Assembly: GCA_022844225.1 (NCBI GenBank)
Contig: JALHMC010000009.1
Span: 39,359-103,358, forward strand
DNA: 64,000 nt
Source of the DNA: Hyphomicrobiaceae bacterium
GTDB taxonomy: Bacteria; Pseudomonadota; Alphaproteobacteria; Rhizobiales; Hyphomicrobiaceae
Direction of reading: 5' to 3'
Positions 25,429 to 40,406 of the stretch are shown piece by piece. A program made the position numbers and the translations under genes. Numbering within the stretch: position 1 is the stretch's first letter; each line of letters starts with the position of its first letter. The notes below the pieces were generated by a model. That model saw only the letters and a program-made list of their open reading frames with translations, did no database searches and had not been told where the DNA came from.

Positions 25429-26649
25429 ATGACATCGACTCGAAGCCTGTCACGCCGATCAGTGCTGGCCGGCGCCGGCGCCGCAGTCGCCGCCCCATCG
25501 ATCTGGACGAGCGCTCAGGCTCAGGCCGGCAACACCATCAAGATCGGCATGCCGCTCGCGCTCACCGGTCCGTTGGGCTCGGTCGGCCAGCAACAGAAGC
25601 GTGGCGCCGAGTTCCACACCAAGTGGATCAACGACCGGGGCGGCATTCTCGGCCGCAAGGTCGAGCTCCTGATCGAGGACACGGTCGGCAACCCGGCAAC
25701 CTGCGTGCGCAAGGCCCAGGAGATGGTTGAGCGCCATGACGTGCGCCTTTTCACGGGCATCACGCTTTCCTCCGAGGCCCTGGCCATCGTGCCAAAGCTC
25801 AACGAGTGGAACTCGATCTTTATTTCGTCGGACAACGGCGATGGACGGTTGACCGCAGCAAGCCTCGTGCCGAACTTCTTCCGGGCCAACACCTCCGGCC
25901 CCATGGGCACGCGAGCCGTCTCACTCTACCTGCGTGAAACGACCCACAAGAAGTTCTTCGCGCTCGGACTCGACTACGCCTGGGGTCACAATAGCGTCCA
26001 GGTGTTCGAGGAAGAGATCAAGCGCATGGGCCGCGAATTCGTCGGCAAGGTATTCGCGCCGACCGGCACCAAGGACTACTCGACCTATATTACCAGACTG
26101 CGCCAGTCGGGCGCCGATGCGGTCTACCTCGTGCTTGCGGGCGACGACAACAACGCCTTCATCGCGCAAGCGGCCCAGTATCAGCTTGCCTCGCGGATGG
26201 CGCTGCTCGCCGAGCAGCTCGAGCTATCGACGATGCGGGCTGTCGGCGACGCCTGCCTCGGCATGATCGTCTCGGCCCGCTACGCCTTCACCATCGACAA
26301 CCCCAAGAACAAGGAGTTCGTCGAACTCTGGAAGAAGGAATACGACGGACTCGTACCCGATCAGTTCGAAGGCGAGCAGTGGCAGTGCCAGCAAGTGTTC
26401 GTGGCTGGCATCACCAAGGCCGGCAGCATCGAGGCCGACAAGCTGCGGCCGGCACTCGAGGACCTCACGATCGACGACATCAAGGGCAAGGTCCATATGC
26501 GCAAGTGCGACCACCAGGGCGTACAGCAGGGCTTCGTGGTCAAGGCCTCCAAGCGCGAAGGCTTCTCGCACCCCGTGCCCGAGGTGATCGCAACGCTGGC
26601 GGCAGATCGCGTCACGCCGCCGTGCAACAAGATGACGTACGACGACTGA
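25429..26649 (+). CDS. Branched-chain-amino-acid-type ABC transporter substrate-binding protein (LivK family)
   Basis: A 406-residue type-1 periplasmic binding protein. The N-terminus SRRSVLAGAGAAVAAPSIW is a Tat-like signal ending near AQA. The body begins IKIGMPLALTGPLGSVG with RGAEFHTKWINDRGGILGRKVELLIEDT, the standard LIVBP strand-helix pattern. Such proteins bind amino acids, amides, urea or aromatic acids; the ligand cannot be told from sequence. It opens a complete liv-type operon (two permeases and two ATPases follow). Confidence 0.92.
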   Translation: MTSTRSLSRRSVLAGAGAAVAAPSIWTSAQAQAGNTIKIGMPLALTGPLGSVGQQQKRGAEFHTKWINDRGGILGRKVELLIEDTVGNPATCVRKAQEMVERHDVRLFTGITLSSEALAIVPKLNEWNSIFISSDNGDGRLTAASLVPNFFRANTSGPMGTRAVSLYLRETTHKKFFALGLDYAWGHNSVQVFEEEIKRMGREFVGKVFAPTGTKDYSTYITRLRQSGADAVYLVLAGDDNNAFIAQAAQYQLASRMALLAEQLELSTMRAVGDACLGMIVSARYAFTIDNPKNKEFVELWKKEYDGLVPDQFEGEQWQCQQVFVAGITKAGSIEADKLRPALEDLTIDDIKGKVHMRKCDHQGVQQGFVVKASKREGFSHPVPEVIATLAADRVTPPCNKMTYDD

Positions 26650-26668
26650 TCACTCTCGACCCCTCCGT

Positions 26669-26820
26669 CCTCTCCCCTACACGTCGGTGGAGAGGGCCTG
26701 GGCGGGGAGCGGCGTCTTGCGCCGGGCGACCATGAGGTCGCCAGTCCCTCGCTTCGCGTTATCGGCAGCACCTCACCCTACCCTCTCCCCACTTGCAAGC
26801 TCAGCGCAGATGGAGAGAGG
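26669..26820. repeat. CCTCTCC/GGAGAGG palindromic intergenic element
   Basis: Between livK- and livH-like genes, CCTCTCC (26669-26675) pairs with GGAGAGG (26689-26695). A second pair is formed by CCCTCTCC (26781-26788) and GGAGAGAGG (26812-26820). The intervening text has CACCTCACCCTACCCTCTCCCC. It resembles the dispersed intergenic palindromes seen in many proteobacterial genomes. Within the operon it could stabilise livK mRNA. Confidence 0.45.
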
Positions 26821-26842
26821 ACGAGAGATCCCGTCACCCGAC

Positions 26843-27712
26843 ATGTCCACCCTCGCCTTCTTATTGAATCAGAGCGTCAATGCGCTCTCGCAGGCCGCGC
26901 TGCTGTTCTTTCTCGGCGTCGGCCTGACGCTCATTTTCGGCATCATGCGCATCGTCAACTTCGCGCACGGTACCCTCTATATGCTCGGCGCTTTCGTCGG
27001 GTACTCGGCGGTTCGCATCACTGGAAGCTACTGGGGCGCGCTCGTGGCAGCTCCCCTCGTAGTTGGCCTCCTCGGCACTGCGTTCGAGTTCGGCATCCTG
27101 CGCCGGCTCTACCGTCGCGATGCGCACGCCTTCCTGATGGTCACGTTCGGTCTCGCCCTCGTCACCGGCGAGGCCGTGCGCCTGATCTGGGGATCGGAGG
27201 CGCTGCAGGTACCAGCACCGGCGCTGCTTTCCGGAGTGGTGTTTCTCCTCGATGAACCGTTCCCGGTCTATCGCCTCTTTTTGGCCGCCGCCGGTGCCGT
27301 TATGGCATTTGCCATCTGGCAATTGCTTGAGCGCACGCGCCTCGGCTTGCTCATTCGCGCGACCTCCCAGAATGCCGAGATGGTGCACGCCCTCGGCACC
27401 GACGTGAACATGATCCGCTCGGCCGTCTTCGGCATCGGCTGCGGTCTCGCCGCCCTCGGCGGGGTGCTCGCCGCGCCGCTCGTCACAGCCTCCCACGGCA
27501 TGGCGGCGTCAGCAGTGATCGACGCCTTCGTCATCGTCATCATCGGCGGCATGGGCAGCTTCCTCGGCTCCCTTATCGGCGCCCTGCTCGTCGCCTTCGT
27601 CCAGGTCTTCGGCAACTACTATTACCCGGATTTCGCCCTCGCCTTCATGTACCTCCTGATGCTTCTGGTTCTCGTCGTCCGCCCGGGCGGCTTGCTCGGA
27701 AAGGAGGCTTGA
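26843..27712 (+). CDS. Branched-chain-type ABC transporter permease (LivH family)
   Basis: A 289-residue inner-membrane permease with about eight hydrophobic helices. LivH motifs are VNALSQAALLFFLGVGLTLIFG, MRIVNFAHGTLYMLGAF, RATSQNAEMVHALGTDV and IIGGMGSFLGSLIGALLV. It starts at ATG 26843; the in-frame region upstream is the repeat element. The stop is followed one base later by the livM start, so the two are translationally coupled. Confidence 0.92.
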   Translation: MSTLAFLLNQSVNALSQAALLFFLGVGLTLIFGIMRIVNFAHGTLYMLGAFVGYSAVRITGSYWGALVAAPLVVGLLGTAFEFGILRRLYRRDAHAFLMVTFGLALVTGEAVRLIWGSEALQVPAPALLSGVVFLLDEPFPVYRLFLAAAGAVMAFAIWQLLERTRLGLLIRATSQNAEMVHALGTDVNMIRSAVFGIGCGLAALGGVLAAPLVTASHGMAASAVIDAFVIVIIGGMGSFLGSLIGALLVAFVQVFGNYYYPDFALAFMYLLMLLVLVVRPGGLLGKEA

Positions 27713-27713
27713 G

Positions 27714-28709
27714 ATGCGCGTGACGAGCCTTCTCGGCCCCCTCGCCCTGGCGCTGCTGCTCGCGGCCCCCTTCGGCCTGCCCATCTTCGCGATGACGCTG
27801 CTTACCGAGCTCGTCATCCTGGGCTTGTTTGCGATGAGCCTGGATCTCATGGTCGGCTACACGCGCCTCGTCTCGTTCGGACACGCGGCCGCCTATGGTC
27901 TCGGCGCCTACGCGTCGGGCTATATCCTGCTCAATTCGGCGCTGCCTCTCCCGTTCGCGGTGCTGGCGGCGGCCATCCTGACCGGCATGATCGCCATCGG
28001 CGTCGGTTGGGTGTGCACGCTCGCGACCGGCGTTTCGTTCTCGATGCTGACCCTGGCGTTCGCGCAATTGCTCTACGCGGTATCCTTCAAGTGGACCTCC
28101 GTCACAGGTGGCTCCGACGGTCTTGCCGGAATTCCGCGCAATCCCGGCCCGTTGGGCCTCGAGGTGCTCAGTACGAAGAACGGCTTTTACTATTTTGCCC
28201 TCGCTTGCTTGGTCGGGTCGTTCTTCCTTTGCCGCGCACTCGTGCGCTCACCCTTCGGTGCCGTGCTGCGCGGCATCCGCGAGAACGAAGCCAAGACGTT
28301 GGCCCTCGGCTACAATACGCGCCTCTACAAGATCACGGTCGTTGCCATCGCCTATGCCTTGGGAGGCTTGGCTGGCGCGCTGTATTCGCCGTTCGCTGGC
28401 TTTGCCAACACCGAGCTGCTGTTCTGGCTGGTATCGGGACAGGTCCTGATCATGGTCATTGTCGGTGGCTCCGGCACGTTGATCGGCCCTATCCTGGGCG
28501 CCACATTCTTCCTCACGCTCGAGCACCAGCTTTCCTCCTACACCGAGGCGTGGGCGCTGTTCTTCGGGCTTACCTTCATCGCCTTCGTGCTGTTTGCCCC
28601 CGAAGGCATCTGGGGGCTCGCCAAACGCTACCTCGGACAACGGGCGCCCGAAGAGACCGAACAGGCGCCGGCAGCCATCACGAAAGCGGAGGCAAAGCCG
28701 CATGGCTGA
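27714..28709 (+). CDS. Branched-chain-type ABC transporter permease (LivM family)
   Basis: A 331-residue inner-membrane permease. Typical LivM stretches are LDLMVGYTRLVSFGHAAAYGLGAY, FKWTSVTGGSDGLAGI, RSPFGAVLRGIRENEAKTLALGY and VIVGGSGTLIGPILGA. Its 3' end overlaps the start of the following ATPase gene by eight bases. It forms the channel with the LivH partner. Confidence 0.92.
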   Translation: MRVTSLLGPLALALLLAAPFGLPIFAMTLLTELVILGLFAMSLDLMVGYTRLVSFGHAAAYGLGAYASGYILLNSALPLPFAVLAAAILTGMIAIGVGWVCTLATGVSFSMLTLAFAQLLYAVSFKWTSVTGGSDGLAGIPRNPGPLGLEVLSTKNGFYYFALACLVGSFFLCRALVRSPFGAVLRGIRENEAKTLALGYNTRLYKITVVAIAYALGGLAGALYSPFAGFANTELLFWLVSGQVLIMVIVGGSGTLIGPILGATFFLTLEHQLSSYTEAWALFFGLTFIAFVLFAPEGIWGLAKRYLGQRAPEETEQAPAAITKAEAKPHG

Positions 28710-29499
28710 GCCGGACACGATCCAAGCAACGAGCGTCGCCCAGCCGAGACCGCCGCTCATCGACGTCGAGGGCCTCACGAAGCGCTACGGTGCCCTCGTC
28801 GCCGTCGACAACGTCTTCATGCGGGTGGCCGAGGGCGAGGTGCGCGCCGTGATCGGCCCCAACGGCGCCGGCAAGACGACACTCTTCCACCTCGTGACCG
28901 GCGTCGTCCCTACCACCTCGGGTACTGTCCGATTTGACGGAGAGACGATCACCGGCCTCCCGGCCCATTCCATCTGCCAGCGTGGCCTCTCGCGCACATT
29001 CCAGCTCACCTCCCTCTTCCCCGAGATGACGGCACGCGAGAACACCATGCTCGCCGCGCAAGCCCGCCATCCACGCCACTGGCTGCCCTTCGGCGGCGGC
29101 AGCGTTTTCGAGCATGCGCGGGCTGCCGGCGACACGGCTCTCGAGCAACTGGGCCTCACGCACGTCGCCAACCGGCCTGCGGGGCTTCTCAGCCATGGCG
29201 ACCAGCGCCTCCTCGAGGTCGCCATGGCGATGGCCCAGGAGCCGAAGGTGTTGCTCCTGGACGAACCGACGCAAGGTCTCTCCGTCGAGGAAACGGCCGA
29301 GGCCGTCGACACGCTCGCTCGCTTCCTCGAAAGAGCGCGCGTCACCGTGTTGCTGGTCGAGCACGACATGGAGGTCGTGTTCCGGTTGGCACACAAGATC
29401 ACGGTCCTGCATCGGGGCGCCGTCATCGCCGACGGAAGCCCCGAGGCGGTCAAGGCGGATGCCCGGGTGCAGGAAGCCTATCTCGGAGGCATGGAGTGA
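28702..29499 (+). CDS. Branched-chain-type ABC transporter ATPase (LivG family)
   Basis: A 265-residue ABC ATPase. Walker A is GPNGAGKTT (about 53-61) and Walker B VLLLDEPTQGLS; the signature region reads LSHGDQRLLEVAMAMA, the LivG variant of LSGGQ. The C-terminal DARVQEAYLGG is typical of LivG. ATG 28702 lies inside the end of livM, giving an N-terminal tail of about 18 residues before the first strand. Confidence 0.92.
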   Translation: MAEPDTIQATSVAQPRPPLIDVEGLTKRYGALVAVDNVFMRVAEGEVRAVIGPNGAGKTTLFHLVTGVVPTTSGTVRFDGETITGLPAHSICQRGLSRTFQLTSLFPEMTARENTMLAAQARHPRHWLPFGGGSVFEHARAAGDTALEQLGLTHVANRPAGLLSHGDQRLLEVAMAMAQEPKVLLLDEPTQGLSVEETAEAVDTLARFLERARVTVLLVEHDMEVVFRLAHKITVLHRGAVIADGSPEAVKADARVQEAYLGGME

Positions 29500-29545
29500 C
29501 CAGACGCAACTTGGCCGCGCCGCCACCCTCTGGGAGCCCCCGACC

Positions 29546-30241
29546 ATGCTGAGCATCCGCGGCCTCAATACGCACTACGGCCAGAGCCACATCCTGCAGG
29601 GTGTCGACCTTGAACTCGCCCGCGGCACCACCGCCGCCGTCCTCGGTCGCAATGGCGTCGGAAAGTCCACCACGGTCAAATCGATCATGGGACTCGTGTC
29701 GCCGACCGGCGGTGCCATCGCCCTCGATGGTGTCGATATTGCTGGCTGGCAGCCTCACCTCGTGGCCCGCGCCGGTGTCGCCTATGTCCCCGAAGGCCGA
29801 TTGATCTTCCCGGACCTTACCGTCATCGAGAACATCCTCGTGGCTGAACGTACGCCAGCGCGCAATTGGCCTCTCGCACGTTTGCTCGAGTTGTTCCCCT
29901 CCCTACAGGCACGCCGCGCCAACAAGGGCTCCCAGCTCTCCGGCGGCGAACAGCAGATGCTGGCTATCGCACGCGCCCTCGTCAGTGATCCCAAACTGTT
30001 GCTTCTCGACGAGCCGAGCCAGGGCCTTGCCCCGCTCGTCGTCCGCGAACTCGCCCGGATCATCCGGCTGCTCCGCGACGCGGGCGTCACAATTCTCCTC
30101 ATCGAGCAGAACATGAAGCTCGCCGAGGCGGTTGCCGACGAGTTGCACATCATGGTCAAGGGTCGCATCGTCTACTCGGCCGACCCCCACCGTTTCCGCG
30201 CGGAGGAGGATCAGGTTCGAAGCCGCTACCTCACGGTTTGA
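29546..30241 (+). CDS. Branched-chain-type ABC transporter ATPase (LivF family)
   Basis: A 231-residue ABC ATPase with Walker A GRNGVGKST, LSGGEQQMLAIARAL and Walker B LLLLDEPSQGLAP. The YVPEGRLIFPDLTVIEN stretch is diagnostic of LivF. It starts at ATG 29546 where LSIRGLNTHYGQSHIL begins. It is the last gene of the five-gene transporter set. Confidence 0.92.
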   Translation: MLSIRGLNTHYGQSHILQGVDLELARGTTAAVLGRNGVGKSTTVKSIMGLVSPTGGAIALDGVDIAGWQPHLVARAGVAYVPEGRLIFPDLTVIENILVAERTPARNWPLARLLELFPSLQARRANKGSQLSGGEQQMLAIARALVSDPKLLLLDEPSQGLAPLVVRELARIIRLLRDAGVTILLIEQNMKLAEAVADELHIMVKGRIVYSADPHRFRAEEDQVRSRYLTV

Positions 30242-32649: not shown

Positions 32650-33966
32650 ATGCTCGACTCGCCGAAAAGCTCCTCGTGCGCGATCGCCGCCGCGCTACTT
32701 GCGATTTCAATCGTATCCGCCGGGCCCCTTCACGCCGAACCCTGCTCGCGCGACTCGATTCGTCGCATCGTCGACGAGGCTGGCGCCCGCCTTCGCGTCA
32801 TCACGAGCGAGACCCAACCGAAAATCATGGCCAGTCTGCGCAAGCTCAAGGAGCAGCGCGGTTGGACCGGTTCGGACGGAGACGAAAAGGCGGCGGCCTA
32901 CCTGTCCGACGAGCGGACCGTCGACCTCGACCGGACGTCCACAACGCTTCTGGCCCAGATCGATGAACTCGGTGAGGCTGCCGCCAAGGCAGAACCCGAT
33001 TGCTCGCGGTTGGCCGAGCTAGAGGCCGCATCGCTCGAGTTGCAGGCTACCGTGAAGGCCAAGGCCCAATACATCCTCGCGCGGTTGGAGCAGGCCTCGG
33101 GCGCGCCGCCATCAACGGCCGCGGCTCAGGCCCCACCTTCAGCGCCTGCACCGGCTCCTGCCGCATTGCCCAAGTCACCCCTCGCTTCTGCCCCTGCGAC
33201 GCCGGCCGCAGAGCCTACTGAGATGACCGACCCGAAAAGCCCGCCCCCGCGACCGGAGGCCCCCCTGCGTCGAGCAGACACGGCGCCCGTCAATCCTTCG
33301 GCCAGACAGCCCGCACCTCCCGCAGCCGCTCCCGTAACTCCGGCCCCACCGAGATCAAAGCCCGCCCCCTCATCCGGCTGGAGCACGGAGACGACGGGCA
33401 GCGCGGTGCCATCGCTCCCCCGGCCACCGCCTCCGTCCGAGCCCCGGGACCTGCCCCTTCCGCCGCTGCCTCGCGAGACCGCCGAGGGTTTTTCCCGCGA
33501 CGAGATCCGCGAGGCGAGCCGCGGCTTCTTCGGCACGATCTCGGGCGGGCTCGCAAGCGTCATGGAGCACGCGTTCTCGACGCTCGGCACGCCCAGCGGG
33601 TACGTCCTCGGCAGCGAGGGCGGCGGCGCCTTCATCGCTGGGCTCCGCTACGGCAAGGGCACGCTGTTCCAGCGCGATGGCAGCAAGCGTGAAGTCTACT
33701 GGCACGGTCCGTCGATCGGCTACGATTTCGGCGCATCAGGCGCCAAGACGATGTTCCTCGTCTACAACCTCAAAAATGAAATCGACATTTTCTCTGGTTT
33801 CTCGGGGGTCGAAGGTTCCGCCTACCTTGTCGGCGGCGTCGGCATGACCGTGCTAACCGACGGCAAGGTCGTCATGGCCCCTATACGCTCGGGCATCGGC
33901 GTCCGTCTCGGCGCTAACATCGGCTACATCCGCTTCACCGCAAGGCCGACTTGGAACCCGTTTTGA
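32650..33966 (+). CDS. eipA: EipA / DUF1134 envelope integrity protein with long Pro-rich insert
   Basis: A 438-residue exported protein (Sec signal to about residue 29, ISIVSAGPLHAEP). Residues about 30-150 form a helical region. Residues about 150-270 are Pro/Ala-rich and probably disordered. Residues about 275-438 are the DUF1134 domain: GFFGTISGGLASVMEHAF, GSEGGGAFIAGLRYGKG, HGPSIGYDFG and an end FTARPTWNPF. EipA is a periplasmic protein needed for envelope integrity in Brucella. Brucella-type EipA is near 200 residues, so this one is about twice the usual length because of the N-terminal additions. Confidence 0.85.
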   Translation: MLDSPKSSSCAIAAALLAISIVSAGPLHAEPCSRDSIRRIVDEAGARLRVITSETQPKIMASLRKLKEQRGWTGSDGDEKAAAYLSDERTVDLDRTSTTLLAQIDELGEAAAKAEPDCSRLAELEAASLELQATVKAKAQYILARLEQASGAPPSTAAAQAPPSAPAPAPAALPKSPLASAPATPAAEPTEMTDPKSPPPRPEAPLRRADTAPVNPSARQPAPPAAAPVTPAPPRSKPAPSSGWSTETTGSAVPSLPRPPPPSEPRDLPLPPLPRETAEGFSRDEIREASRGFFGTISGGLASVMEHAFSTLGTPSGYVLGSEGGGAFIAGLRYGKGTLFQRDGSKREVYWHGPSIGYDFGASGAKTMFLVYNLKNEIDIFSGFSGVEGSAYLVGGVGMTVLTDGKVVMAPIRSGIGVRLGANIGYIRFTARPTWNPF

Positions 33967-33973
33967 CGGTCCA

Positions 33974-36304
33974 TCATCCCGTCCATAAGGCCCAGGTTCC
34001 GTTCACACCTCGGATGCTCACCTGGTAGACGAGCCACGCGGCCGCCGCGACCATCAGCGGCATGACCACCACATGCATGGCCCACAGCGTTCCCTTCAGC
34101 CAGCCACGCGCGGTCACGACCGGGTTCATGCGCATGATCGAGATGATGATCATGAGGCTGACCATCATGTAGTTGAAGACGAAGATCCGGTCCGAGACAG
34201 TCGCCGTGTCGGAATCGATCTTCGGCAACGAGAGATAGAGCGCCACGGCCGAGAGGAGCGCTGTCACCTGGATCGTGACGATCGCCTCGAAATGAGAAAT
34301 CGGAATGAAGATCGACAGGTAGGCGACGACGAGGATGAACGCCAGCGGCACCACCACCCTCAGATAATAATCGGTGGTTTGCCGCTTCATCAGCCACACG
34401 AAGCTCGCCTTGTAGAACGGCACGACGCTCGCCTCGTACGTATAGGCATCGATCAGCGGAATGAAGTCTTCGTCGTAGCCCGCATATTGGACTTTCTGGT
34501 CCCAGCCATCCGTCGCCACTTGCTTGTCGCGGAGTTCAGCCGGCGGCGGCTGCACGATGAACGGCGCATCCCCTCGCTTCGGCTGGATGTCGATCGAGAA
34601 CCGCTGCGTGTCGAACGGATAGCTCTCGAGCTCCGGCTCGAAGACGAAGCGCCCCGTGACCTTGTAGACCTTCATCGCATTCGGATAGGTGTTGCTCGAT
34701 CCCCCGTCGTGGAGGCGCTCGATGCTGACCTGGCGGCCGTTGGTTCGCGGATCGACGTAGCCGTTGGTGAACTCGATCTGCTCGATCGAGCTGGCTGCGC
34801 CGTTGCGCATTGACAGATAGAACTCGGCGAAAAAAGTCTTCTCGTTGTCTTCGACGTGATGTGCGCGAACCATATCGATATCGAGATACAGCGTCTCGAT
34901 CTTCCGCAGCGATCCGTCACGCACACGAATGAACTGGACCGGCGCGAGCTGCGTCCGGCCCAGGCCGCGTGGCAGGATGACGACGAACGGCGTCCGCGAT
35001 GCCGCGCGCGTCACGGGATGGAACGACCAGTTGTCGAAGCGTCCTTTGAACGCCCCCTGCCCGGTCGCAAACGACGACTTGATCTGGCTCGTAACCAGGC
35101 GTCTCAGACCGACGAGATCGGTATGCGCCTTCGCCGGCGCAGCAACCGACGCGATCATCGCAATCATGTCGGCTGCGATCGAGCCGATCCCGACGGCACG
35201 CATGTTGGCGCTGGCCATGGGGTCCGGCTCTCCGGCGGGACGTGCCTCGCACGCCCCTTTCGACCAGCCCGGTGCCTCGGGCACCTTGGCGCCTTCGAAA
35301 ATCCAGCGCTCGGCAGGGTCCTTGGACATGATCTTGCGGAGCCGATCGTTGTCGGCCTGGGGCAGACGGTCAAAGGCGAGTTCGTAGAAGGCGTCCGGGT
35401 AGTTCTCGGTCAGCTCCTTCGGCAGCATCTCGATCCGCCCGCTTACGAAAACCGCGGGCGTCACGCTTGCCTTGATCATCTCGCCGAGGAAGGCCGTGGC
35501 CCGTTCGCCGCCGAAGCCGAGAACGAGAACTTCGGGCCGCTTCTCAGCGAGATCCGCCACGGCAGCCGCAATGCCCCCGGCATCCAAGGCTCCGTCCTGT
35601 CCGGCCAACCGGTGATCGGCGACCAACTGACGATCACCGAGAGCACGCTTCAAGCCATCGCCCAGCGCGCGACTGAAGACCGTCTCCGACGACCCGACGA
35701 ACGCCGCTCGCTCGAACCCCATGTGGCGCACGAACTCCACCATGACGGGTATCCGCTCGTCGTCCTGGGTGGATTGCGTCGTGAAGACGTGCGGGTACCC
35801 GGAAATGATGCTGTTGACCGAGATGCTCGAGAGGAACGGGATGCGCCGGTCGCCGATCTCCTTGCCGAGCGCATCGAACACGGCCTTGGCCCGGTCCGAT
35901 CCGGAAAGCCCCACCATGGCAAGCATCTCGGGATCACCGAGCGCCCAGCGGACGTTGGCGACGGCCCGCTCCGGATCGCGAGCGTCGTCCAGAATGCGCA
36001 CCTGAAGGGGTCGACCGGCGATCCCGCCAGCCTCGTTGATGCGGGCCTCCTCGGCCTTCGCCATGGCCGTGACGGCCGCGACATCACCCGGATCGTAGCA
36101 GCGATCCGTCCGCGAGCTCACGAACACCGCGATCCGTAAAGGCGGCGCCGCAGCTTCGGCTCGGCCGGCAATCTGCGCTTGCGCGGTTGGCGTTGCGGCA
36201 GGCGCCACCGACAGGACCCAACCGATCGTCAAGAGCAGCACGCAAGCTGCCACGACACGCCGAAGCCGGCCACGGCCAAGCTTCCGCATTGCAACGGACA
36301 CCAT
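33974..36304 (-). CDS. Type-1 periplasmic-binding-protein / pentameric ligand-gated ion channel fusion
   Basis: A 776-residue predicted inner-membrane channel. A signal sequence spans about 12-44. Residues about 55-420 are a LivK-like type-1 binding domain (LRIAVFVSSRTDRC, ARINEAGGIAGRPLQVRILDD, FERAAFVGSSETVF). Residues about 455-640 form the beta-rich extracellular domain with the pro-loop YPFDTQ (562-567). Four helices follow: M1 647-667 with Pro653, M2 673-692, M3 704-725 and M4 738-762. M2 reads EAIVTIQVTALLSAVAL, placing Glu at -2', Thr at 2' and 6' and Leu at 9', as in cation-selective GLIC. The mature protein has only two Cys (69 and 352), both in the binding domain. ATG 36304 lies behind GGGGGAG. 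The ligand is unknown. Confidence 0.9.
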   Translation of the reverse strand: MVSVAMRKLGRGRLRRVVAACVLLLTIGWVLSVAPAATPTAQAQIAGRAEAAAPPLRIAVFVSSRTDRCYDPGDVAAVTAMAKAEEARINEAGGIAGRPLQVRILDDARDPERAVANVRWALGDPEMLAMVGLSGSDRAKAVFDALGKEIGDRRIPFLSSISVNSIISGYPHVFTTQSTQDDERIPVMVEFVRHMGFERAAFVGSSETVFSRALGDGLKRALGDRQLVADHRLAGQDGALDAGGIAAAVADLAEKRPEVLVLGFGGERATAFLGEMIKASVTPAVFVSGRIEMLPKELTENYPDAFYELAFDRLPQADNDRLRKIMSKDPAERWIFEGAKVPEAPGWSKGACEARPAGEPDPMASANMRAVGIGSIAADMIAMIASVAAPAKAHTDLVGLRRLVTSQIKSSFATGQGAFKGRFDNWSFHPVTRAASRTPFVVILPRGLGRTQLAPVQFIRVRDGSLRKIETLYLDIDMVRAHHVEDNEKTFFAEFYLSMRNGAASSIEQIEFTNGYVDPRTNGRQVSIERLHDGGSSNTYPNAMKVYKVTGRFVFEPELESYPFDTQRFSIDIQPKRGDAPFIVQPPPAELRDKQVATDGWDQKVQYAGYDEDFIPLIDAYTYEASVVPFYKASFVWLMKRQTTDYYLRVVVPLAFILVVAYLSIFIPISHFEAIVTIQVTALLSAVALYLSLPKIDSDTATVSDRIFVFNYMMVSLMIIISIMRMNPVVTARGWLKGTLWAMHVVVMPLMVAAAAWLVYQVSIRGVNGTWALWTG

Positions 36305-36507
36305 TGCGCACTCCCCCGAACACGAACGACCACCCCATCCCGAGGGCCAGTCTACGCCAAGCGCCGCGTCGCACAAAACGGCAGATAGCGTTGCAGCCCG
36401 AGCCCGATACCCCCCAATTGCGGCAGGCTTGGCACACGGGCGGGGATGCGCCTAGCATGGCCCCACAACGCCGAGCCCAAAAAGCTCCAACTTCGAGGAT
36501 CGCCTCC

Positions 36508-38160
36508 ATGGCCCAGACCGTCGCCCGCCTCCCGGCGGAAAGCCTCAAAGCGCACGACGTCGATCTCGTTTATTGCGTGCCCGGCGAGAGCTACCTGGGT
36601 TTGACCGATGCGCTCTCCGACATGAATTCCATCCGCCTCGCCGTCTGCCGGCACGAGGGCGGCGCTGCGTTCATGGCCGTCGCCGACGGGCGCCTGCGGG
36701 AACGCGCTGGCGTGGCCGTCGTCAGCCGCGGGCCAGGTTTGTCGAACGCCATGGTGGCCTTGCACACGGCGTTTCACGATGCGACGCCGATGGTGATCCT
36801 GGTCGGCCAGGTGGAGCGCAAGGACTTCGGCCGGCTGGCGCTGCAGGAGCAGAATTATTCGAAGCTGCTCGGCGATGTCACCAAGGCCGTGATCGAGGTC
36901 AACGAGCCGGTCATGGCGTCCGAGGCGATCGCGCGGGCCTTCCATCTCGCTGAGAGCGGGACGCAGGGCCCGGTCGCCGTCGTGCTGCCCGAGGACATCT
37001 TCAACGACACCACCGATGCTCCGGTCGATCAGCCGCGTCCGCGCGTCTACGGTGGCGCGCGGCCTGAGGATCTCGACCGTCTCGCCGACATGCTCGGCAA
37101 GGCCGAGCGCCCGCTCGTATGGGTCGGCGGCGCCCTGCTCGGCGATGGCGTCACCGACGACCTGCGCAAGCTCGCGGAAACCTGGATGCTGCCGGTCAGC
37201 CCGACCCACCGGCGCCCCTGCCATTTCGACGCCAACCATCCGAACTACGGCGGTTACATGGGCATCCGCGTACCCAAGGTGCTGCTCGACGAGATGAAGA
37301 AGGCCGACCTGATCGTAGCGCTCGGCGAGCGGATCACGGACTCGGTCAGTCAGTCCTACTCGTTCCCGGCGGCGCCCCAGCCCCAGCTTCCCCTCATCCA
37401 CATCTGGCCCGACCCCAACGAGATCGGCCGCGTCTGGCGCCCAGATCTCGGCATCGCGGCCGATCCGCAGGCCGTCATCCGTGCGTTGCTCGCCAAAGGC
37501 GCCCCGAAGGACGCCGCCAAGCGAAAAGGCTGGGTGGCTGGCCTCAACGGCATCCATCGCAAACTGATGGCACCCGAATGGGAGCCGACCACCGACGGCA
37601 TCAACTTTGCCCAGGTGGTGGTCGAGATCGGCAAGCACTTGGCGCCCGACGCCATCGTCACCTCCGACGCCGGCAACTTCTCGAGCTTCATCCACCGCTA
37701 CATCGGCTTCAAACCGGGCCAGGCGTTCCTCGCCTCCGTGGTCGGGGCCATGGGCGCCGGCATGCCGATGGCCGTAGCCGGCGGCATGCGCTTTCCCGCT
37801 CGTCAGGTCGTCGCCTTCGTCGGTGACGGCGGCGCACTCATGACCGGCAACGAGATCGCGACGGCCCGCCAGTACGGCGTCAACCCGATTCTCGTCATCT
37901 CCGACAACAGCATGTACGGCACCATCGGCATGCACCACGAGATGCGCTACCCGGGCCGGCCCTACAAAAGCGCCACGCAACTGACCAACCCCGACTTTGC
38001 CATGTGGGCCAAGTCGTTCGGCGCCGAGGGCATCACGGTGACGGACGAGAAGGACGTGGCGTCAGCCGTCGCGCGCGGCTTCTCGATCAAGGACCGCCCC
38101 GTCGTCCTCCACTTCAAAACCTCCGCCGACCAGATGAGCGCGTGGCGGCGTAGGAAGTAG
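36508..38160 (+). CDS. ThDP-dependent acetolactate-synthase-like enzyme
   Basis: A 550-residue cytoplasmic ThDP enzyme. The N-terminal Pyr domain has the catalytic Glu50 (CRHEGGAAFMA). The central domain shows PLVWVGGALLGDG. The C-terminal PP domain has the Mg/ThDP motif GDGGALMTGNEIATARQYG...ISDNSMYG, with about 27 residues between GDG and N. It resembles the catalytic subunit of acetolactate synthase or glyoxylate carboligase and related decarboxylases, but no small regulatory subunit (ilvN) is adjacent. ATG 36508 is used; the open frame upstream overlaps the divergent channel gene. Exact substrate unresolved. Confidence 0.85.
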   Translation: MAQTVARLPAESLKAHDVDLVYCVPGESYLGLTDALSDMNSIRLAVCRHEGGAAFMAVADGRLRERAGVAVVSRGPGLSNAMVALHTAFHDATPMVILVGQVERKDFGRLALQEQNYSKLLGDVTKAVIEVNEPVMASEAIARAFHLAESGTQGPVAVVLPEDIFNDTTDAPVDQPRPRVYGGARPEDLDRLADMLGKAERPLVWVGGALLGDGVTDDLRKLAETWMLPVSPTHRRPCHFDANHPNYGGYMGIRVPKVLLDEMKKADLIVALGERITDSVSQSYSFPAAPQPQLPLIHIWPDPNEIGRVWRPDLGIAADPQAVIRALLAKGAPKDAAKRKGWVAGLNGIHRKLMAPEWEPTTDGINFAQVVVEIGKHLAPDAIVTSDAGNFSSFIHRYIGFKPGQAFLASVVGAMGAGMPMAVAGGMRFPARQVVAFVGDGGALMTGNEIATARQYGVNPILVISDNSMYGTIGMHHEMRYPGRPYKSATQLTNPDFAMWAKSFGAEGITVTDEKDVASAVARGFSIKDRPVVLHFKTSADQMSAWRRRK

Positions 38161-39227: not shown

Positions 39228-40406
39228 ATGCCGACGAACATTCAGGTCGTGGTTGGTCATTACGTGCCGATCACGAAGGTGTACCCACAATCCATCGAGA
39301 CAACAGCAACCAAGTACTTGGTTCGTCAGACCGTCGTAGTCGGCATTCACTTAGGCACGACATTGACCATGGTGCTGCATGGATCAGGTTTCACCTACTC
39401 GAACGGTGAGCCAGTAAGCGGTATCATTACGTCGTTAGAATTCAGGAACATCACAGGTGGAGGGCTTATCGGCAACGAGCCATCGACTGGTGGATATGAG
39501 GTCATCGGCGGACTCGAGATCGACGCCGCCACGTTCATGGCAGCCTATAACGCACAGGATTGGGCCGCAGTCCGCGAACTAATGTTCCCAGGGGCCGTCT
39601 TGTTTGCCGGTTATGACGGTGCATCATCGGGCTATACGAGCTGGGCCGACGCTTTCGACTCAGGCCCGGCCAACGACACTCTCCTAGGTGGGATCGGGAA
39701 TGACACACTGCGAGCTTACGCTGGTGACGACTACATCAATGGCGGCAGCGGCGACGACGTATTGATGGCCGATGCCGGAGCTGACGTCATCTTCGGCGGC
39801 CTCGGCAGTGACTCAATTTGGACCGGCGACGGTACCGACACCGTCCTTGCGGGCGATGGCAGCGACCTCGTCTACGGCGACGTCGGCAACGACCTCCTCT
39901 TCGGCGAAGGCGGCAACGACACCCTCCTTGCCGGTGACGGCGACGACTTCGCGGCGGGCGGCGCGGACAACGACTACGTCGCGGGCGAGGCCGGCGCCGA
40001 CTACCTGATGGGCGAGGCGGGCAACGACACGCTCAGCGGCGGCCTGGATAACGACGTTCTAGTGGGTGGCTCGGGAGCCGACGCGCTCTTTGGCGACGAC
40101 GGCGCGGACGCCCTCTTCGGCGGCACGGGCAACGACTATTACGTCGGCGGGGCCGGCAACGATTACTTCTATGCCTTCCACGACGGTCCGGTTGCAGGCG
40201 AACTCGACATCATCGACGGCTTCGAAGTCTGGACCTCCGGCACCGCCGATTATCTCGTGCTGCCGGCGGCCTATCAAACGGCCACCAGCGTCTTCGACCA
40301 AGGCGGCTACACCTGGGTTGCGACACAGACCACAGGCGGCGCGCACTACATCGCGATCACGGGAGCGAACGCGGCGTTCGTCACCGCCCAGACTGTCTGG
40401 ATCTGA
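39228..40406 (+). CDS. RTX (hemolysin-type calcium-binding) repeat protein
   Basis: A 392-residue protein with about 18 glycine/aspartate-rich nonapeptides (type GGxGxDxLx) over residues about 155-315, each pair able to bind calcium in a beta-roll. The N-terminal 150 residues are beta-rich with no recognised catalytic domain. The last 75 residues are the likely uncleaved type I secretion signal region. No signal peptide is present, fitting type I export, but no T1SS ATPase, membrane-fusion or outer-membrane gene is in the window. ATG 39228 is the first start after the divergent promoter region 39084-39227. The N-terminal third has visibly higher A/T. Confidence 0.85.
   Translation: MPTNIQVVVGHYVPITKVYPQSIETTATKYLVRQTVVVGIHLGTTLTMVLHGSGFTYSNGEPVSGIITSLEFRNITGGGLIGNEPSTGGYEVIGGLEIDAATFMAAYNAQDWAAVRELMFPGAVLFAGYDGASSGYTSWADAFDSGPANDTLLGGIGNDTLRAYAGDDYINGGSGDDVLMADAGADVIFGGLGSDSIWTGDGTDTVLAGDGSDLVYGDVGNDLLFGEGGNDTLLAGDGDDFAAGGADNDYVAGEAGADYLMGEAGNDTLSGGLDNDVLVGGSGADALFGDDGADALFGGTGNDYYVGGAGNDYFYAFHDGPVAGELDIIDGFEVWTSGTADYLVLPAAYQTATSVFDQGGYTWVATQTTGGAHYIAITGANAAFVTAQTVWI

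What the first reader, a model, noticed from the sequence alone, without database searches (positions are those of the whole stretch)
33974..36304. Periplasmic binding protein fused to a pentameric ligand-gated ion channel
One 776-residue frame joins a LivK-like type-1 binding domain (about 55-420) to a full pLGIC: beta domain with pro-loop YPFDTQ, M1 with conserved Pro, an M2 reading EAIVTIQVTALL, M3 and M4. M2 aligns with GLIC position by position (Glu -2', Thr 2', Thr 6', hydrophobic 9'), predicting a cation-selective pore. The design is like ionotropic glutamate receptors, where a LIVBP-like domain caps a channel, but on a different channel fold. Extra N-terminal domains on bacterial pLGICs are known in general (for example DeCLIC), but a solute-sensing binding-protein cap would make a directly ligand-gated bacterial cation channel.
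Basis: partly seen in the sequence, partly recalled or inferred. Interest (0 to 1): 0.88.

Follow-up and report, generated by a model that had tools for sequence, protein, structure and literature searches.

The report
Binding-protein-capped bacterial ligand-gated ion channel
This bacterial gene encodes one protein that joins a nutrient-binding domain to the channel fold of animal neurotransmitter receptors, and it is predicted to be an ion channel that is likely gated by a dissolved substance; the design was described in 2004 but has probably never been tested in this family.

The parts
33974..36304 (-). whole coding sequence, 776 aa plus stop, ATG start
36176..36304 (-). residues 1-43: predicted Sec signal peptide (basic start, hydrophobic 13-39, then AQA); cleavage site inferred
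   Evidence: sequence; hydrophobic stretch
34985..36142 (-). residues 55-440: type-1 periplasmic binding protein cap
36098..36100 (-). Cys69 codon, in the loop after the first strand of the cap; one of the only two Cys of the mature protein
   Evidence: Cys in 120 of 121 family rows, gap in the other
35249..35251 (-). Cys352 codon, in or beside the family-specific insertion; predicted disulfide partner of Cys69
   Evidence: Cys in 121 of 121 rows; both absent together in 4 of 12 further members
35207..35350 (-). residues about 319-366: stretch of the cap with extra residues against stand-alone binding proteins, holding invariant Trp334, Trp347 and Cys352; exact borders depend on the alignment
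   Evidence: alignment; counts
34382..34939 (-). residues 456-641: pLGIC extracellular beta-sandwich
   Evidence: models; fold matches; profile match to GLIC
34604..34621 (-). residues 562-567 YPFDTQ: pro-loop (no Cys)
   Evidence: P563 and D565 in 121 of 121 rows
34307..34378 (-). residues 643-666: M1, with Pro653
   Evidence: P653 in 121 of 121 rows
34229..34300 (-). residues 669-692: M2 pore helix; Glu673 (-2'), Thr677 (2'), Thr681 (6'), Leu684 (9'), Ala688 (13'), Leu691 (16')
   Evidence: register against GLIC
34127..34198 (-). residues 703-726: M3
33980..34105 (-). residues 734-775: M4 and C-terminal tail

Best explanation
The window encodes one 776-residue protein in which a type-1 periplasmic binding domain is fused to a complete pentameric-ligand-gated-channel domain, and it is predicted to form a homopentameric, cation-selective pore that is likely opened or tuned when a small solute binds the cap. 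Shown by sequence, profile and predicted fold: a hydrophobic N-terminus, a binding-protein cap, a beta-sandwich with a pro-loop, four TM helices and a GLIC-like M2. Inferred: the protein inserts in the inner membrane with cap and sandwich in the periplasm; five subunits assemble as in GLIC; solute closes the two lobes of each cap; the motion passes through the invariant junction (Gln452-Leu453-Ala454, Gln457) to the beta-sandwich and on to M2; the Glu -2' ring admits cations.
Against: No ligand, oligomer or current was tested and no pentamer was modelled. The LIVBP ligand motif is only partly kept: the position aligned to Ser79 of LIVBP is Ser or Thr in 97 and Ala in 23 of 121 rows, and the position aligned to its Thr102 is Val, Leu or Ile in 120 of 121 (LIVBP numbering recalled), so the cap may bind something else or, in part of the family, nothing. 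Some carriers have two copies (G017, G021, G034), which would allow heteromers. Shorter relatives without a Pfam-detected cap exist, some on long contigs (P0179, P0223, P0230, P0260); whether these are cap-less channels or broken or mis-called genes was not resolved. Pfam Neur_chan models do not detect the channel.
Confidence: 0.6

Rival explanations
1. The channel is gated at the ordinary pLGIC inter-subunit site (or by pH or Ca2+), and the cap only modulates kinetics, concentrates ligand or docks partners, as the unrelated N-terminal domain of DeCLIC seems to do.
For: In DeCLIC the N-terminal domain appears to accelerate gating, while Ca2+ depletion activates (PMC12664993 and PMC9897478, abstracts and passages). 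Tasneem et al. proposed that PBP-I helps concentrate or sense ligand that then binds the LBD (PMC549065, passage). The channel half is more conserved (mean identity to the query 0.70 for 440-640, 0.67 for 640-776) than the cap (0.54 and 0.52). Cap-less relatives cannot be excluded.
Against: The domain junction is invariant and predicted ordered; all 120 whole-length relatives listed carry a precomputed Peripla_BP_6 domain.
Confidence: 0.25
2. It is a chemotaxis receptor: solute-gated ion flux steers motility (the 2004 proposal for this channel class).
For: Proposed from domain fusions and neighbours by Tasneem et al. (PMC549065, passages).
Against: MCPsignal was found in 8 of 23 genomes with the channel and in 18 of 37 without; flagellin in 9 of 23 and 21 of 37; neither in 11 of 23, of which 9 are at least 90% complete. 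No association in all 60 genomes (Fisher p 0.42 and 0.29) nor in the taxonomic family alone (7 of 20 against 4 of 16, p 0.72; 8 of 20 against 7 of 16, p 1.0). The window's own genome shows neither, but is 85% complete.
Confidence: 0.06
3. It is an ABC-transporter substrate-binding protein with an odd C-terminal membrane anchor, as databases name it.
For: Source names such as 'ABC transporter substrate-binding protein'; a Liv-type ABC operon lies 3.7 kb beyond the channel's stop (25429-30241); frames similar to its ATPase genes occur in 5 of 21 loci, but at varying places 1.0 to 8.3 kb away and on either side.
Against: The C-terminal half is a full pLGIC fold; the Liv operon has its own binding protein (25429-26649), far from this cap in the tree; no gene keeps a fixed place beside the channel in the 21 loci (frames under 120 aa were not looked at, and several contigs are short).
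Confidence: 0.04
4. The gene product is a non-conducting receptor or a decaying gene.
For: Some genomes carry broken copies: one TGA in the matched stretch of L007 and four stops in that of L031.
Against: Pore-lining positions are invariant or nearly so across 121 proteins; the window's copy and most matches show no stop.
Confidence: 0.05

Closest known systems
PBP-I-fused prokaryotic ART-LGICs of Bradyrhizobium japonicum and Magnetospirillum magnetotacticum (Tasneem et al. 2004)
   Same: N-terminal PBP-I domain, then channel LBD, then four TM helices, in alphaproteobacteria.
   Different: The cysteine pair in the cap is not mentioned in the parts I read.
GLIC (Gloeobacter violaceus)
   Same: Extracellular beta-sandwich, pro-loop, M1 Pro, M2 with Glu -2', no large cytoplasmic loop.
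   Different: GLIC has no cap and is proton-gated; about 15-18% identity over the fold.
DeCLIC
   Same: Prokaryotic pLGIC with a large N-terminal periplasmic domain; among the best sequence matches.
   Different: Its N-terminal domain is two beta-rich jelly-roll lobes, not a binding protein (PMC9897478, passages).
LivK/LivJ-type solute-binding proteins
   Same: Fold of the cap and sequence of its first part.
   Different: Extra residues around 319-366, cysteine pair, partly changed ligand motif, covalent fusion to a channel.
Ionotropic glutamate receptors and class C GPCRs
   Same: A PBP-I domain caps a membrane signalling protein (mGlu, GABA-B and a plant GLR appear among cap matches).
   Different: Different pore or no pore; likeness of design, not membership.
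PBP + pLGIC-type beta-sandwich + MscS chimeras (L087-L090)
   Same: Cap of the same clan; beta-sandwich homologous to that of lineage ii and, more weakly, to this family.
   Different: MscS-type pore instead of M1-M4; one with a C-terminal cNMP-binding domain.

Membership tests
Pentameric ligand-gated ion channels (pro-loop receptors) | extracellular beta-sandwich followed by four TM helices in the pLGIC fold | tested here: met
Pentameric ligand-gated ion channels (pro-loop receptors) | sequence homology to accepted members | tested here: met
   family channel profile vs GLIC E 2e-6 (best entry) and DeCLIC 6e-7; alpha7 nAChR TM region E 2e-4 from one sequence
Pentameric ligand-gated ion channels (pro-loop receptors) | pro-loop Pro and the kink Pro in M1 | tested here: met
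   P563 and P653 in 121 of 121 rows
Pentameric ligand-gated ion channels (pro-loop receptors) | match to Pfam PF02931/PF02932 (a detection aid, not a defining trait) | tested here: not met
   no hit at E up to 10; lineage ii reaches PF02932 only at E 0.001-0.002, below the cut-off
Pentameric ligand-gated ion channels (pro-loop receptors) | five subunits around one conducting pore | not testable with these tools
   needs biochemistry, cryo-EM or electrophysiology
Animal-type Cys-loop receptors (narrow sense) | disulfide that closes the Cys-loop in the beta-sandwich | tested here: not met
   no Cys in residues 353-776, so it is not a Cys-loop receptor in the narrow sense
Type-1 periplasmic binding proteins (Peripla_BP_6 clan) | curated profile match and two-lobed fold | tested here: met
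Type-1 periplasmic binding proteins (Peripla_BP_6 clan) | working solute pocket | tested here: inconclusive
   Ser79-like position kept in most, Thr102-like position replaced by a hydrophobic residue; no binding assay
PBP-I-fused LGICs of Tasneem et al. 2004 | PBP-I domain N-terminal to LBD and four TM helices | tested here: met
   against the description read
PBP-I-fused LGICs of Tasneem et al. 2004 | same subfamily as the 2004 B. japonicum and M. magnetotacticum proteins | not tested
   their sequences are not in the text held
Ionotropic glutamate receptors | inverted K+-channel-like pore inserted in a PBP-II domain | tested here: not met
   the pore is M1-M4 of the pLGIC fold after a continuous beta-sandwich; iGluR design recalled
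ABC-transporter substrate-binding proteins | soluble or lipid-anchored protein encoded with its permease | tested here: not met
   four TM helices in channel fold; no gene keeps a fixed place beside it in 21 loci, ATPase-like frames in 5 of 21 at varying places

The most novel reading that the evidence does not exclude
The binding-protein cap plus beta-sandwich is a portable solute sensor that evolution has mounted on two unrelated kinds of pore: pLGIC pores of the cation type (this family, with a disulfide-tied cap) and of the anion type (lineage ii), and an MscS-type pore, in one case with a cytoplasmic cNMP-binding domain. The window's protein would then be a solute-gated cation channel of bacteria with and without flagella, serving a role outside chemotaxis.
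Probability: 0.4. Interest if true: 0.82.

Novelty: new member of a known kind. Interest (0 to 1): 0.52.

Why it matters
According to the 2025 DeCLIC paper (passage), DeCLIC is the only pLGIC whose extra N-terminal domain has been even partly characterised, and its domain is not a binding protein. This family offers many homologues in which a classical binding-protein switch sits on a classical neurotransmitter-receptor channel. That makes an open question testable: can a venus-flytrap domain gate a pLGIC as it gates other receptors? The cap can be screened for ligands on its own, and the register of the pore is clear. It also shows that such channels hide under binding-protein names because the standard Pfam models miss them.

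Tried and rejected
Assembly fusion of two genes: rejected. Cap borrowed from the neighbouring Liv operon: not supported, far apart in the tree. Conserved partner genes: none at a fixed place; (21 loci from 19 genomes, frames of 120 aa or more) the channel is in 21 of 21, two clusters of 17 and 14 loci are overlapping frames of the same gene, and the next cluster, frames similar to the window's Liv ATPase genes, is in 5 loci at varying places. Plasmid origin: no plasmid match to the channel half at E 1e-5. Chemotaxis link: see rivals.

Single versus repeated fusion: undecided. In the cap tree family i is one clade (100/100) and lineages ii plus iii another (100/99); one origin for all fused caps is not rejected (AU p 0.368). 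In the channel tree family i is one clade (100/100), ii plus iii only weakly (82/81), and one origin is likewise not rejected (p 0.482). The cap tree used 38 of the 48 candidate rows; L002, L007, L009, L010, L011, L014, L016, L020, L028 and L064 were left out. The stand-alone binding proteins in it are only 11. The channel tree used 34 rows; L094 (PDZ-like N-terminus) was dropped after the first run, L093 gave no usable frame, and L092 and L096 were not used.

A claim of mine withdrawn on checking: I had placed the extra residues 319-366 in the second lobe of the cap. I had no coordinates; by LIVBP topology (recalled) they would rather fall in the first lobe, so the predicted disulfide may lie within one lobe.

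Weak or faulty calls: (whole protein against 385 class genomes) scored at most two candidates per genome and its two non-own hits are ordinary binding-protein stretches; replaced, where at most five candidates per genome were scored, so absence there is not proof. One search contained one antisense row (L072); its tree is discarded. The VIA look at the full-length model lists cap matches, hence the channel-only model. One search was too broad to be useful. One search (Hyphomicrobium with ligand-gated ion channel) found no paper. The match of the MscS-chimera sandwich to lineage ii is partly circular, because those stretches were found with the lineage ii profile; the match to this family is not.

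Full report

Pore. M2 reads E673-A-I-V-T-I-Q-V-T-A-L-L. The position -2' is Glu in 115 and Asp in 6 of 121 rows; Thr 6' and Leu 9' hold in 120 of 120 ungapped rows. By the rule that Tasneem et al. give (Glu before M2 in cation channels, a basic residue in anion channels; PMC549065, section 7 part 1 read) and by likeness to GLIC this predicts a cation channel. It has not been measured.

The cap. Compared with stand-alone binding proteins the cap has extra residues around 319-366, a stretch that holds invariant Trp334, Trp347 and Cys352; the borders depend on the alignment. Cys69 lies in the loop after the first strand. These two are the only cysteines of the mature protein here; 114 of 121 rows have exactly two after the signal peptide, 6 have three and 1 has one. 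Both are present in 120 of 121 rows, the other row having a gap at 69. Among 12 further members both are present in 8 and both absent in 4 (L024-L027, one clade in the tree, so one event). I predict a disulfide; which lobe or lobes it ties was not determined. The LIVBP amino-acid motif is only half kept (numbering recalled), so the ligand may differ from branched-chain amino acids. The junction between cap and sandwich (Gln452, Leu453, Ala454, Gln457) is invariant in A1 and predicted well ordered, which favours mechanical coupling over a loose tether.

Distribution. The whole protein has 340 relatives at E 0.001 or better in the protein database, of which the 120 listed align over 79-100% of it and all carry Peripla_BP_6; the channel half has 838 (120 listed). 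Some lower-ranked relatives may share one half only. Source names seen are ABC transporter substrate-binding protein, periplasmic binding protein and hypothetical protein. Of the 9 listed rows that name an organism, 8 name Hyphomicrobiaceae or Hyphomicrobium and 1 Leptospira interrogans (perhaps a mislabelled or contaminated record; not checked). In 60 related genomes, own included, 23 carry it at E 1e-20: 20 of 36 of the taxonomic family and 3 of 24 of other families of the order. Across the class, of 385 genomes the single channel sequence hit only the own genome and the profile only the own genome and one weak hit. In 150 genomes of the order the profile hit 16: 8 strongly (this family) and 8 weakly (other pLGIC-like genes, three of them capped). 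The own genome has one copy and 12 Peripla_BP_6 matches, this one included; three relatives have two copies. A search with the channel half alone also returned shorter proteins without a Pfam-detected cap, many on short contigs but some on long ones; I did not resolve whether any is a true cap-less channel.

Context. The gene stands alone: convergent with an EipA gene (32650-33966) and divergent from a TPP-enzyme frame (36187-38160). A Liv-type ABC operon lies 3.7 kb beyond the stop, with its own binding protein, which is not close to this cap in the tree. In 21 loci no gene keeps a fixed place beside the channel; frames similar to the Liv ATPase genes occur in 5 of 21 at varying distance. Nothing in the context names the ligand.

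How it most likely works. Solute enters the periplasm, binds between the lobes of the cap, the lobes close, the movement passes through the ordered junction to the beta-sandwich and opens M2 for cations. Shown: the parts and their conservation. Inferred: topology, pentamer, ligand binding, coupling, selectivity. The strongest rival is that the cap modulates a channel gated elsewhere, as the DeCLIC N-terminal domain seems to (PMC12664993 and PMC9897478, passages). The chemotaxis reading of 2004 is not general for this family: chemoreceptor signalling domains were found in 8 of 23 carriers against 18 of 37 non-carriers, flagellins in 9 of 23 against 21 of 37, and neither in 11 of 23, nine of them at least 90% complete. 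Absence from a draft genome is weak for each genome alone, less so for nine.

Related architectures. Lineage ii (L065-L067; L057 more loosely) has a cap that matches Peripla_BP_6 over nearly its whole length and, in L065-L067, an M2 of the anion type (EIPPRLSGGILVLVTV). Lineage iii (L087-L090, in 4 of 385 class genomes, two of one genus) has a cap, then a beta-sandwich homologous to that of lineage ii (hhalign E 4e-27, partly circular; 8e-8 to this family over 106 columns), then an MscS pore (MS_channel_2nd E 5e-15 to 7e-19) and in L087 a cNMP-binding domain. Caps of ii and iii form one clade (100/99). I saw no report of such chimeras in the listings of two searches (15 of 101 papers listed; 3 of 4 listed); the library lacks most subscription papers.

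What is known. PBP-I fused to this channel class in alphaproteobacteria: Tasneem et al. 2004 (passages, section 7 part 1 and the figure legends). Jaiteh et al. 2016 set the terminal domains aside and asked for such work (PMC4795631, passage). A 2022 review repeats the binding-protein likeness (PMC9221113, passage). Only three papers in the library hold both 'pLGIC' and 'periplasmic binding protein'. The window protein is therefore a new member of a known kind, well supported, with untested function; its interest lies in the experiment it allows and in the modular relatives.

Noticed in passing
L087 1-3552 (-), L088 85-3297 (-), L089 112-3369 (+), L090 115-3237 (-): Binding-protein cap plus pLGIC-type beta-sandwich followed by an MscS-type pore, in L087 also a C-terminal cNMP-binding domain; found in 4 of 385 class genomes. 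Not seen in the listings of two paper searches.
   Followed up: partly
L065 223-2457 (+), L066 169-2496 (+), L067 859-3105 (-): Capped pLGICs whose M2 looks anion-type (PPRLSGGILVLVTV), so both selectivity types seem to occur among capped channels.
   Followed up: partly
L094 1444-2805 (-): A pLGIC with a PDZ-like N-terminal stretch (PDZ_2 E 0.0017, below the curated cut-off).
   Followed up: no
L068 131-1252 and 1339-2391 (+): Two uncapped pLGIC-like genes in tandem, possibly subunits of a heteromer (the second matches Neur_chan_memb).
   Followed up: no
L028/L031 (G034) and L007 (G021): Broken copies: four stops across the cap of a second copy in L031, one TGA in the matched stretch of L007. 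Described only, not mended.
   Followed up: no
P0062, no window coordinates: A close relative (59% identity) sits in a record labelled Leptospira interrogans; perhaps mislabelled or contaminated.
   Followed up: no
P0179, P0223, P0230, P0260, no window coordinates: Shorter relatives without a Pfam-detected cap on contigs of 11.5 kb to 2.8 Mb: cap-less channels, or broken or mis-called genes.
   Followed up: no
window 25429-30241 (+): Liv-type ABC transporter operon with its own binding protein, two permeases and two ATPases.
   Followed up: partly
window 39228-40406 (+): Small RTX protein with seven HemolysinCabind stretches.
   Followed up: no
window 36187-38160 (+): TPP-dependent enzyme frame, divergent from the channel gene; true start not resolved.
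   Followed up: no
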